Notes under the pieces: model-generated | What the model saw: the letters and a program-made list of their open reading frames with translations, nothing else | Database searches by the model: none | What the model was told of the DNA's origin: nothing | Source of the DNA: Laburnicola sp. R22_1 | Lineage: Eukaryota > Ascomycota > Dothideomycetes > Pleosporales > Didymosphaeriaceae | Assembly (NCBI GenBank): GCA_014281115.1 | Contig: JACONQ010000004.1 | Location: 2,232,001 to 2,296,000, forward strand | Length of the DNA stretch: 64,000 nucleotides | Reading direction: 5' to 3' | Position numbers and translations under genes: made by a program | Shown here: positions 9,812 through 42,893 of the stretch, one piece after another | Position numbering within the stretch: the first letter of the stretch is position 1 | Layout: each line of letters starts with the position of its first letter

Positions 9812-10469
9812 ATGCCGCCTAACGGTACGCTCGTGGTGCAGGTCGGCCGCGGTGACGCTATGGAGACGTTCCACACCCTCGACGGCAAGTCATCCTCTCC
9901 ACTCTCATTCCTAGATCGCTTGCACACGAAAGCTCGGATTGAAAGCGGCGTGCACATCGTCGAGCTACCCGATACCGAGCCAGACACCTTCCGCGACTAC
10001 CAAGACTACGCCCTCACTACCATCATCCCACACTTCAGGTACATCTGAAAGAAGACTTCGCGCACTCTCGGTACACGGTATAACGCTCTTCAGGTACATT
10101 AATACCGATCCGACGAACTTCATCCAGCTCAGCAAGCTCTACGTACTGGCCGAGCACTTCGATGACGTTGGGACCAAGAATGCTGTTGTCTGCACCATGA
10201 TAAGCATCGCGAAGGCTCGGTATATGATTGTGAGACCTTTGAACGACTCGGTCACTATCATTTACAAGGGAACGAAAGTTGGGGCGATGGCACGTCGCTT
10301 GTTGGTTGATATTTTTGTCGACCACGCGGACGAGGGATGGTTGGGTGGTTGGGAGGCGCCGAAGGAGTTTCTCGAGGATTTTCTCATGCGGTTGCTGGCA
10401 CGGAGGCCGCCGCCGATTGATGGAACTGTGTTCACGTGCAAGCCTGAGGTGTACGTGGAGAAATTTTGA
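9812..10469 (+). CDS. BTB/POZ-type protein, split by an introner-like element
   Basis: Exons 9812-10038 and 10094-10469 give 200 aa. The N-terminus (GTLVVQVGRGDAMETFHTLD) and the conserved SKLYVLAEHFDD helix followed by ARRLLVDIFVDHADEGW match fungal BTB-domain proteins with the post-BTB helical part, which mediate dimerisation and often act as Cul3 adaptors; substrate unknown. The 55-nt intron (10039-10093) is an insertion of a repeated ~43-nt sequence flanked by a 12-bp duplication (CTTCAGGTACAT). The duplicated bases themselves supply both the GT donor and the AG acceptor, and removal restores HFRYINTDP exactly. Start 9812 was preferred over 9791 because the paralogue near 10932 begins in the same context (ATG-CCT-AAC). 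Confidence 0.75.
10033..10099 (+). repeat. Introner-like element copy A with 12-bp target duplication
   Basis: Direct repeats CTTCAGGTACAT at 10033-10044 and 10088-10099 flank a 43-nt insert (10045-10087). The insert's core begins AAGAAGACTTCGCGCACTCT and ends GGTACACGGTATAAC. The same core occurs at 10.60, 42.30, 27.03 (minus strand) and, diverged, 12.43 kb. This copy sits inside a BTB coding sequence and has all features of a GT-AG intron. Confidence 0.85.
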
Positions 10470-10578: not shown

Positions 10579-10643
10579 CTAAACTGTCAGTGATAAAGAA
10601 GACTTCGCGCACTCTCGGTACACGGTATAACTAAACTGTCAGT
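10579..10643 (+). repeat. Introner-like element copy B with 13-bp target duplication
   Basis: Direct repeats CTAAACTGTCAGT at 10579-10591 and 10631-10643 flank a 39-nt insert whose 36-nt core is identical to copy A. It lies about 110 bp downstream of the first BTB gene's stop codon, so it is intergenic or in a 3' UTR. A GTGATA donor-like site and a CTGTCAG acceptor-like site are present, so it could also be spliced if transcribed. Confidence 0.85.
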
Positions 10644-11015: not shown

Positions 11016-11903
11016 ATGGTACGATGTAGCTATATCGAGACTGAGCTGGTCAAGATCACGGTCGGCCAGCACGATGAGGCGCGCACGTTCGCCATTCATC
11101 AAGGTCTCCTCTGCCCGCGATCCGAGTACTTTACTACGGCTCTGAATGGACGCTGGGAGGAGTCTGACAACCGGGTTATCAAGCTTCCGGAAGACGAGCC
11201 TGCAGCCTTTGCGCTTTAGGCGAAGCTACTTTACGCCCGAGACACCGAGTACATCGCCATCATGTGCGGCGAAATGAGTATCGAGGTCAATCGAAAAGCG
11301 GAAGGTGAAATCCCCAACGGAATTGAGGGTCGGACTGACAACAAGACCGAAGCAGATGGAGGAGCCATGGAAGACGATACCCCAGCATCGAAATTTCATC
11401 TGCCGTGCGAGCTATATGTTCTAGCCGAGAAGCTCATCGATGAGGGGAGGAAAGACAAGACCCTCCTCGGCATGGAGTTGCTCTCCCGCGAGACGTTCAC
11501 TGTGGATGGCAAGTCACGGAATATCGAGAGCGTGGCAATTATCTACGATGGGACACCCGAAGGCAGTCCGGCTAGGGATTGCATCGTACAGACTTACCTC
11601 CTGTATGTCGACAAAGCATTCCCACAGGGTGAAGCGCAGCTTTTGCCATATGAATTCCTGGGCGATCTTTCTTCTAGTCTGCTTGCTGGACGCCGTAGAG
11701 AAATTGACATTGACGAACAACTGAGAAATCTGGAGCAACTACATGGACAAAAAATTGCAAGGGCTGGTGCCGAAGTGCTCAAGGAGCAAACTCGTGCGCA
11801 GGCCAACAAGATCCAATTCCTTAAGAGGGAAATCAACAAGTTGAAGGAAGAAAATGCGAAGGAACACTCCAAACCGCACTCTGTGTTCACTAGCCATGGC
11901 TAG
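11016..11903 (+). pseudogene. BTB/POZ gene with an internal stop codon
   Basis: One frame reads a BTB domain (ETELVKITVGQ, FAIHQGLLCPRSEYFTTAL, WEESDNRVIKLPEDEP) up to a TAG at 11217-11219. It continues in the same frame (AKLLYARDTEYIAIM ... CELYVLAEKLIDEGRKDK ... ARDCIVQTYLLYVDKAF) and ends with a ~50-residue charged coiled coil (RAQANKIQFLKREINKLKEE) before the TGA-free end at 11903. The stop sits where paralogues have an aromatic residue (FALxAKLLY), so it looks like a tyrosine codon turned into TAG; that is not a C-to-T change. The 5' end is unclear: the original start may be 10932, but I could not find a clean intron joining it. May be a pseudogene, or a sequence error in a live gene. 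Confidence 0.6.
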
Positions 11904-26672: not shown

Positions 26673-28239
26673 GGAAGTATAGCACCTGGTAAGAGTGGTG
26701 ACGTTGAAAGAGTTCGAGGAAAAACTGCGTCTTCACCTGCCGGTGAGGGGACGCGTATAGGGCGGAACTGATTTTTTTTCCCGGGCGATAAACGACTCAA
26801 AATGGGACGAAACGATAGGAAGAAAGAGGAAGGCTGTGAGCCGACCTTGAATATCTGTGAAAGTGTGACGCGTCGGCTCCACATCGTGGTTGACCCCTAT
26901 GAGGGACTGATTTGCGCGTGCTCACGAACAGTGTCCCTAAACAGTCACTAAACTAGTCTTATTGCTTTACCTTGTTACAAAGCGTTTTTCTAGCACCCCT
27001 ATAGCTTTCTATAATAGTGTTATACTGTGTACTAAGAGTGCGCGAAGTCTTCTTTTATATAGTTTTACTTACTTTAGCTGTGGAATTATATTTAATGTGC
27101 TGTAAATTTTTATGATCGGTAAAAGGATATAAATGGGGAAATGAATGCGTGGCTTCGTGTAGTGAATGGGACAAGGGAAATCATATATTGATAGCTGGCT
27201 CGATTGGGACTACGCACTGCGCTATACCACATGCGCAAGGTACGTCAAGACTTCCCAGGTTTAGCACCAATGAGACACCTAAAAAATACCATACTATAGT
27301 GGTGTATTTAATGTGAAAAGAATTTTACGATACCGTGCCGATGGATCAAAAGTGATATGATCCAAGATAATTCTGGAAACTATATATTGGTTCACATTTG
27401 TCAATAATGAACTGGAAACTTTCATAGATCATAAGATTTGATAGCTTAACAGCACAGTTTAAGAACAAAGGTAAGAGAAGAAAGGGCGTAATAGTGTCAA
27501 CTACAGTGCAGAGCTAAACTATGATACGATGATTAATCACAAAGGGCCGATCACGTGGTAGACTGCGAACATGGAAACCAGACAAGACGTCATGTATTAC
27601 GGTAGTCCGAGGTGGCTTGTCAGTATCGATTGTAGTGCAATTGAGGCTTCACCTGCCGGAGGGGACGCGTATTGCGCACGGCTTTTTACGAAGGAAAATC
27701 GAAGACGGCAAGTGTCCGAGTATAGGGCGGGGCCGAATTTCTTTTCCGGCGACATGTGAGCCAAAATAAGACCGAACGTGGTTTGATGAGTGGTTTTCTT
27801 TTGATCTCAACACTTTCTGTGTGTGTCATGTTCGATTGTAGTACGTCGCGTTTTGAGGGAGGCTTGTGAGAAGCAAGTTCTCCACCTGACTTCTGAACAC
27901 CCTTGACCGTCTCCTCGCACGGACCACGCCGCCGCGCCACGCATCACGTGCCATGCTTCATCCCGAGGTCCCTATTGAGGCGCAGCTTCCAGATCCGACC
28001 TAGCGCGAATGAGTCACTTTCACTCACACTGTGCGCATTGCACCAGCCTCGTGAGGCTCAGCACTTCTCAGGGTAGGAGTCATCGCAACCGCCTAGGAGC
28101 TGAACCATACGGTATCGTATAAGGGACAGTAGAAGCTCGACGGAAAGCGTCTATAATCTATTCAATCGCGCATTAACGTTCGTATTGAACACACCACCTT
28201 CGTCAGCCTTCTACCAGATTGAGCGAAAATTTCAGATTC
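26673..28239. other. Intergenic, ~1.57 kb, with repeats
   Basis: Holds an introner-like repeat copy (27019-27054) and two diverged copies of a segment: CTTCACCTGCCGG then GGGGACGCGTAT then AGGGCGG, at about 26733-26830 and 27646-27785. No coding region recognised. The last 250 bp are the promoter of the RNA-processing fusion gene. Confidence 0.5.
27019..27054 (-). repeat. Introner-like element copy E (minus strand)
   Basis: The reverse complement reads AAGAAGACTTCGCGCACTCT then TAGTACACAGTATAAC, i.e. the core with about three substitutions. Flanks ACTATATA and ACTATTATA look like a decayed target duplication. Confidence 0.65.
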
Positions 28240-42187: not shown

Positions 42188-42893
42188 TGGGGCCACAGTA
42201 GTCGATGACTGCGGGAGGCAGACACATCACAATATGTGCTACACTTCTGCAGAGCAGCAGGTACCCGCAATGTCGGTATCACTGGATGAGCTGTGTGATC
42301 AAGAAGACTTCGCGCACTCTCGGTACACGGTATAACGCTGTGAGGGAAAGCAGTGGGTGTGCTAAAGAACGCAGTGAATCAAAGCAATGAGACTGGTTTG
42401 GCGACCGTTCGGGGACACTGTTCGTCTTTTGAGCATGTACAAATCGGCCCCTCATGCCGATGAGAGGATGAGCTGTGTAGATAATAGTTCCGCAAGATAT
42501 GTATCCATTTCTCATAAACTCTGGACTCCGGACAATCTAAATATTAAACCGCTGCATTCTCAAACTGAGGTTATCAGTCGAAGAAGAGCTACCAGATACC
42601 GGTCCGGAAGAAAGCACGTAACATTTCCGTGCCATATCGAGAGATTAACCGACGCCATGGTCCAGCTCTGCGGTACATAGAAATTCTATCACCCTGTACT
42701 GCCCAACCCGAACATTGAGAAGTACCTCTGGATCATCTATTCAAGGGCCACATGATTAAAGAAAGCCTGAGAGCTTGTCAATACAAAGGAATTGCAGTTG
42801 ATGGTATCAACGTACCCTTATATTTTGAACTCCACTGTCCCTCCCTGCGGGCCACTCGGCGTATGGCTTGTGAGCATCCTGGCCGTTCAACAG
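42188..42893. other. Intergenic, 706 bp, with an introner-like repeat
   Basis: 3' flanks of two convergent genes. Contains the repeat at 42301-42336. Confidence 0.5.
42301..42336 (+). repeat. Introner-like element copy C
   Basis: 36-nt core identical to copies A and B. Flanked by gctgtgtga and gctgtgagg, a partly decayed target duplication. Lies ~115 bp after the TSC10 stop codon. Confidence 0.8.

What the first reader, a model, noticed from the sequence alone, without database searches (positions are those of the whole stretch)
10033..10099. A 43-nt mobile repeat became a perfect intron in a BTB gene (candidate introner-like element)
A BTB coding sequence is interrupted by a 43-nt insert flanked by an exact 12-bp duplication (CTTCAGGTACAT). 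The duplicated target supplies both the GT donor and the AG acceptor, so the 55-nt span (10039-10093) splices out and restores HFRYINTDP exactly. The same 36-nt core recurs at four other places. Introner-like elements are known from several Dothideomycetes; the very short length and long target duplication are unusual.
Basis: partly seen in the sequence, partly recalled or inferred. Interest (0 to 1): 0.9.

Follow-up and report, generated by a model that had tools for sequence, protein, structure and literature searches.

The report
Retroposon stub, possible newborn intron
A short broken-off end of a young jumping element landed in what looks like a fungal gene and duplicated a splice-site-like word on both sides, so it might be cut out as a brand-new intron, but the element family as a whole behaves like an ordinary retroposon that avoids coding sequence, not like an intron-making 'introner'.

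Summary
In detail: at 10033-10099 an exact 12-bp repeat brackets a 43-nt insert, and removing 55 nt (10039-10093, GT...AG) restores one reading frame. A divergent paralogue reads through the site without an intron.

The interpretation changes. The 43 nt are the end stub of a longer, dispersed element (172 exact copies of its 15-nt end word). Of 139 catalogued copies, 116 have a 10-16-bp target duplication around inserts of 30-449 nt, with one constant end and one variably cut end. That is the pattern of 5'-truncated non-LTR retroposition, here antisense to the gene. Many copies stop beside a predicted 3' hairpin, so stub plus duplication is often intron-sized.

It is not an introner family on these data. 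Sites with coding-like flanks are depleted (6 of 138 against 217 of 1062 background positions), and AGGT in duplications is at chance level (8 of 116; about 9 expected). Recognised genic copies include two inside older introns, three in-frame exonic additions and one frameshifted DHDPS gene.

This insert is therefore one candidate proto-intron made by a retroposon stub. Its length fits, but the donor (GTACAT) and branch-like site (ATAAC) are weak. I put appreciable splicing at about 0.45; no RNA data were available.

The parts
9812..10038 (+). First part of the BTB-like reading frame (75 codons + 2 nt), ending ..CACTTCAG
10033..10044 (+). Target-site duplication, left copy, CTTCAGGTACAT; holds the candidate donor CAG|GTACAT
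10045..10087 (-). 43-nt stub of the retroposon (element sense on the minus strand; constant 3' end at 10045, truncated end at 10087)
10088..10099 (+). Target-site duplication, right copy; holds the candidate acceptor CTTCAG|G
10039..10093 (+). Candidate 55-nt intron GTACAT...ATAAC...CTTCAG; the A of ATAAC is 10 nt before the intron's last base. Splicing not shown
   Evidence: splice signals compared with candidate introns
10094..10469 (+). Second part of the BTB-like reading frame
10579..10643 (.). Second copy downstream of the gene: 39-nt stub (10592-10630) between 13-bp duplications CTAAACTGTCAGT
42284..42478 (.). Longer copy: 169-nt insert (42297-42465) between 13-bp duplications GGATGAGCTGTGT
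27022..27054 (-). Older copy of the core with 3 mismatches, no convincing duplication (8 bp only)

Best explanation
The insert is a 5'-truncated stub of a young element of non-LTR retroposon type (a SINE, or the 3' end of a LINE), placed antisense in a BTB-like gene by target-primed reverse transcription, which duplicated 12 bp of target. Copying starts at a constant 3' end (..GCGCGAAGTCTTCTT followed by TCAG.. or GATC..) and often ends just past a predicted hairpin, so many products are about 30-45 nt. Because the target held CAG|GT on the coding strand, the duplication put GT at one end and CAG at the other of a 55-nt span: one candidate proto-intron, probably spliced only in part if at all. 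Shown: copy structure, duplications, truncation pattern, reading frame, paralogue without the insert. Inferred: reverse transcription as the mechanism, the role of the hairpin, and splicing (about 0.45 that it is appreciable; the confidence below is for the retroposon-stub part).
For: 172 exact copies of the 15-nt end word and 168 of the 26-nt core with up to 2 mismatches, 0 for reversed controls. One constant and one variable end. 116 of 139 catalogued copies have a 10-16-bp duplication hugging the insert, 78 of them exact and at least 11 bp, against 13 of 140 and 1 of 140 at random window positions. Truncation points cluster: 26 of 116 at 21-27 nt from the fixed point, 8 exactly at 24, the foot of a predicted hairpin. 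L037 looks like a template-switch chimera inside one duplication pair. For the proto-intron: coding-strand CAG|GT at both ends, length 55, branch-like ATAAC, early stop if retained.
Against: No reverse transcriptase, Pol III promoter or known RNA family was linked to the element, and the end has no A-tail. The hairpin-bearing 98-nt tail is not more stable than its shuffles (z -0.36). 23 of 139 copies show no duplication by the criterion. For splicing: donor lacks G at +5, ATAAC was seen in 0 of 46 donor-constrained candidate introns, and one AGGT by chance among five exon insertions has a probability of about 16%.
Confidence: 0.88

Rival explanations
1. Same retroposon stub, but retained in the mRNA: the gene is simply broken (stop after 78 aa) and the CAG|GT in the duplication is a coincidence. 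It differs from the best explanation only in the outcome.
For: AGGT in duplications is at chance level: 8 of 116, about 9 expected. Donor and branch-like site are weak. Another copy frameshifts a DHDPS gene without rescue that I could see (L116). The neighbouring BTB-like frame already carries a stop at 11217-11219, so loss of such a gene seems tolerable.
Against: Insertions with coding-like flanks are strongly depleted, so a surviving frame-breaking one asks for a reason; the duplication holds CAG|GT on the right strand (about 3.5% per insertion).
Confidence: 0.53
2. A true introner-like element family: a mobile unit that multiplies as introns across many genes.
For: A repeated sequence lies in a gene with GT and AG at the ends; many copies are intron-sized with their duplication (40 of 116 at 44-70 nt).
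Against: Coding-like sites are depleted, 6 of 138 against 217 of 1062; AGGT at chance level; the two copies found in introns lie in older introns with their own GTAAGT, GCTGAC and YAG; most copies have no genic context that I could recognise.
Confidence: 0.03
3. Filler DNA captured at a staggered double-strand break, as proposed for new introns in Daphnia; the filler happens to be a piece of a repeat.
For: Short insert between short direct repeats, as described there (PMC4202315, passages).
Against: Captured filler would be drawn from anywhere in the element; here copies share one fixed end.
Confidence: 0.03
4. A miniature DNA transposon.
For: Short, non-coding, with target duplications.
Against: No inverted repeats around the insert; truncation at one end only; duplications vary from 10 to 16 bp.
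Confidence: 0.02

Closest known systems
5'-truncated LINE/SINE insertions of fungi (MGL and Mg-SINE of Magnaporthe; AfuSINE of Aspergillus fumigatus)
   Same: Insertions between 10-20-bp direct repeats, 5' truncation, template-switch chimeras (PMC2104539, passages); SINE duplications of 4-14 bp (PMC5063351, start of abstract in the listing).
   Different: Here the truncation is extreme, with many stubs of 30-45 nt stopping beside a predicted hairpin; no tRNA or 5S relation found and no partner LINE identified.
Transposon insertion into AGGT as a route of intron gain
   Same: Duplication of AGGT supplies both splice sites, as drawn in the review PMC3443670 (passages).
   Different: Here the insert is a retroposon stub of intron size rather than a whole element; splicing is not shown.
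Introner-like elements of ascomycetes
   Same: Repeated sequence in a gene with GT-AG ends.
   Different: Ascomycete introners are reported without target duplications or inverted repeats and biased toward genes (PMC9860276, passages; PMC4457414, passages). This family has duplications and is depleted from coding-like sites.
New introns of Daphnia with short direct repeats
   Same: Short insert between 4-12-bp repeats (PMC4202315, passages).
   Different: There the source of most inserts is unknown and break repair is invoked; here the source family is identified.

Membership tests
Introner / introner-like element | Many copies lie as introns in different genes | tested here: not met
   6 of 138 sites with coding-like flanks against 217 of 1062 background positions; only two copies recognised inside introns, both older introns
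Introner / introner-like element | Element or its duplication regularly supplies the splice sites | tested here: not met
   AGGT on either strand in 8 of 116 duplications, about 9 expected; sense copies end in CTTCTTTCAG in one subfamily, but no use of it was found
Introner / introner-like element | Copies are spliced from transcripts | not testable with these tools
   No RNA data held
Non-LTR retroposon (SINE or truncated LINE) | Variable-length target duplications of about 10-20 bp | tested here: met
   116 of 139 copies, 10-16 bp; 13 of 140 at random positions
Non-LTR retroposon (SINE or truncated LINE) | Constant 3' end with variable 5' truncation | tested here: met
Non-LTR retroposon (SINE or truncated LINE) | A-rich or simple-repeat 3' tail | tested here: not met
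   Tails end ..TCAGATA or ..GATCATA without A-run; many but not all non-LTR elements have such a tail, so I keep the claim at 'retroposon type'
SINE | tRNA-, 5S- or 7SL-derived head with Pol III promoter | tested here: inconclusive
   No Rfam match in five long-copy loci; the true 5' end of the element is not known
LINE | Reverse transcriptase upstream in long copies | tested here: inconclusive
   Deeper body found at 35 places and 150 of 662 RT candidates scored; I saw no convincing pairing by position, and the sequence upstream could not be fetched

The most novel reading that the evidence does not exclude
A young retroposon makes new introns as a by-product: its reverse transcriptase tends to stop at a 3' hairpin, giving stubs of about 30-45 nt that, with a 12-16-bp target duplication, are exactly intron-sized, and whenever the target holds CAG|GT the insertion is born as a spliceable intron. 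This would explain new fungal introns flanked by short direct repeats without any dedicated introner.
Probability: 0.25. Interest if true: 0.8.

Novelty: new variant of a known kind. Interest (0 to 1): 0.5.

Why it matters
How introns arise is still open. Insertion of a transposon into AGGT has long been proposed, and ascomycete introners are reported as the odd group without target duplications. A young retroposon that leaves many intron-sized stubs with clear duplications gives a countable system: each stub in a gene is a natural experiment on whether a fresh CAG|GT duplication is enough for splicing. Even if this insert is retained, the survey separates 'looks like an introner' from 'behaves like one'.

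Tried and rejected
Introner family: rejected on coding depletion and AGGT counts. DNA transposon: no inverted repeats, one-sided truncation. A second spliceable case, L072 (duplication with CAACCAGGTGCT, 50-nt span): its 194-aa frame has no Pfam match and poor hexamer scores on that strand, so I do not count it, but it is not excluded. L067, L028 and L078 scored as coding-like by hexamers; I judged them by eye not to be clear exons and did not count them. A splice-site survey from exon scores alone was too noisy and was replaced by one constrained on branch site or donor, still approximate and limited to lengths of 44-95 nt. Search for protein relatives: 73 candidates, none at E 0.001. Rfam: nothing. 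Link to a LINE: not found. Paper searches for a fungal intron made by a retroposon showed no such case in their listings; that covers only one open-licence library, those terms and the rows listed.

Limits of the counts. The catalogue holds copies whose DNA was fetched, not all copies: 41 copies listed were not fetched, searches did not list all their hits, and one search lists further ones. Copies with identical flanks were counted once. One of the 140 rows (L055, minus strand) is a chance match; it was dropped (116 of 139) but is still. The first null (7 hits) used a shorter search span and an unprinted number of sites; one search repeats it with the full span in the window (13 of 140; 1 of 140 for exact repeats of at least 11 bp). 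One search used 138 rows with enough flank; its coding model was trained on 67 long frames from the same loci and some background loci overlap, so the p value is nominal; the six 'coding-like' sites include L009, which is really an intron. could not see stubs much shorter than 16 nt of the core, so the absence of truncation points below 21 is weak evidence. The genic cases are those I recognised, not a complete list.

Full report
What is there. The window holds an exact 12-bp direct repeat at 10033-10044 and 10088-10099 around 43 nt. The span 10039-10093 begins GTACAT and ends CTTCAG. Removing it gives one 200-aa frame; keeping it gives a stop after 78 aa. A divergent paralogue on the same contig (L041) is one open frame across the site, so the insert is most simply the derived state. 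The label BTB rests on similarity to paralogues and on a sub-threshold PF00651 match of a fragment of the adjacent similar gene (E 0.0012); the gene itself and L041 have no BTB match in Pfam.

What the 43 nt are. In the window's genome (64 Mb, 26 contigs, unnamed) the 26-nt core occurs 168 times with up to two mismatches and the 15-nt end word 172 times exactly, with zero for the reversed controls. The flanks show one constant and one variable end. I fetched part of the copies. Of 139 catalogued (one chance row removed), 116 have a 10-16-bp duplication hugging the insert, most of them 12-14 bp; 82 of the 116 duplications are exact; insert lengths run from 30 to 449 nt. The same criterion passes at 13 of 140 random window positions; for exact repeats of at least 11 bp it is 78 of 139 against 1 of 140. 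Longer copies extend the stub into a common body with two subfamilies. This is how 5'-truncated non-LTR retroposons look when read on the minus strand: a constant 3' end ..GCGCGAAGTCTTCTT followed by TCAGATA or GATCATA, and a variable 5' end. The copy at issue therefore lies antisense to the gene.

Why so short. Truncation points cluster: 26 of 116 lie 21-27 nt from the fixed point and 8 exactly at 24, the foot of a predicted hairpin CGTGTAC-CGAGA-GTGCGCG. The hairpin is a prediction; the 98-nt tail is not more stable than its shuffles (z -0.36). Smaller clusters lie at 50, 72 and 86-88. In 40 of 116 copies insert plus duplication is 44-70 nt. In a rough survey limited to 44-95 nt, 46 candidate introns with GTRNGT donors were 46-92 nt long, 23 of them 57 or below.

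Is it an introner family? Not on these tests. Sites with coding-like sequence on both sides: 6 of 138, against 217 of 1062 grid positions in the longer loci and the window (nominal Fisher p 3.4e-7). Duplications with AGGT on either strand: 8 of 116, about 9 expected. Genome-wide, AGGT near the constant end occurs 8 and 17 times on the two strands, among 172 end words. The genic copies that I recognised behave variously. L009 lies in a sodium/calcium-exchanger gene (PF01699 on both exons, the second below the cut-off) and L132 in an unassigned gene; both sit inside older introns with GTAAGT, GCTGAC and YAG outside the duplication. L066 (HET-domain gene, PF06985, 51 nt), L108 (108 nt, no Pfam match) and L140 (66 nt, in a gene with an upstream intron) are in-frame additions without a stop. 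L116 breaks the frame of a DHDPS-family gene (PF00701). With ours these make five exon insertions; the list is not complete.

Is this copy spliced? For: CAG|GT on the coding strand at both ends, a fitting length, a branch-like ATAAC whose A is 10 nt before the intron's last base, and an early stop if retained; survivors in coding-like sequence are rare. Against: the donor GTACAT lacks G at +5 (G in 25 of 42 branch-constrained candidate donors, a mixed set in which GTACAT occurs once), CTRAC is present in 18 of 46 donor-constrained candidates and ATAAC in none, a chance AGGT among five exon insertions has a probability of about 16%, and the neighbouring BTB-like frame already carries a stop at 11217-11219, so loss of such a gene seems tolerable. 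I put appreciable splicing at about 0.45. The insert matches two other window copies without mismatch over 33 nt, so it looks young and the intact downstream frame says little.

Comparison. The geometry is the long-proposed insertion of a transposon into AGGT (PMC3443670, passages). Ascomycete introners are reported to lack target duplications (PMC9860276, passages; their range in relatives of Fulvia and Dothistroma is in PMC4457414, passages), so this family is not of that kind. New introns of Daphnia show 4-12-bp repeats and are read as break repair with mostly unknown inserts (PMC4202315, passages); a retroposon stub is a further possible source there, which I did not test. Fungal LINE and SINE insertions with 10-20-bp repeats, 5' truncation and template-switch chimeras are known from Magnaporthe (PMC2104539, passages); L037 here looks like such a chimera.

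Verdict. Observation confirmed; interpretation partly supported. It is a retroposon stub with a splice-competent target duplication: a fair candidate proto-intron, not a member of an introner family.

Noticed in passing
window 11016-11903 (+): The neighbouring BTB-like frame is interrupted by an in-frame stop at 11217-11219, so the similar gene next door looks decayed.
   Followed up: partly
L037 (C12:149160): Chimeric insert of 275 nt: two pieces of the element around an unrelated stretch inside one 13-bp duplication pair, as after template switching.
   Followed up: partly
L066, L108, L140: Three copies lie in frame in coding-like exons (51, 108 and 66 nt) and add element-encoded residues; L066 is a HET-domain gene.
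   Followed up: partly
L116 (C25:629101): A DHDPS-family gene (PF00701) is broken by a 100-nt insertion (89 nt plus 11-bp duplication).
   Followed up: partly
window 27022-27054 (-) and copies beginning TAAAAGAAG: Some copies carry several C-to-T and G-to-A changes, reminiscent of repeat-induced point mutation (recalled); not measured.
   Followed up: no
L027 (C8:2313902): A copy without the usual tail whose duplication TTCTTCTTTTACC resembles the element's own tail, perhaps from priming by pairing of target and template.
   Followed up: no
G000 contig C21: All nine genome matches to the BTB-like protein lie on the same contig, C21 (two of them are this gene itself).
   Followed up: no
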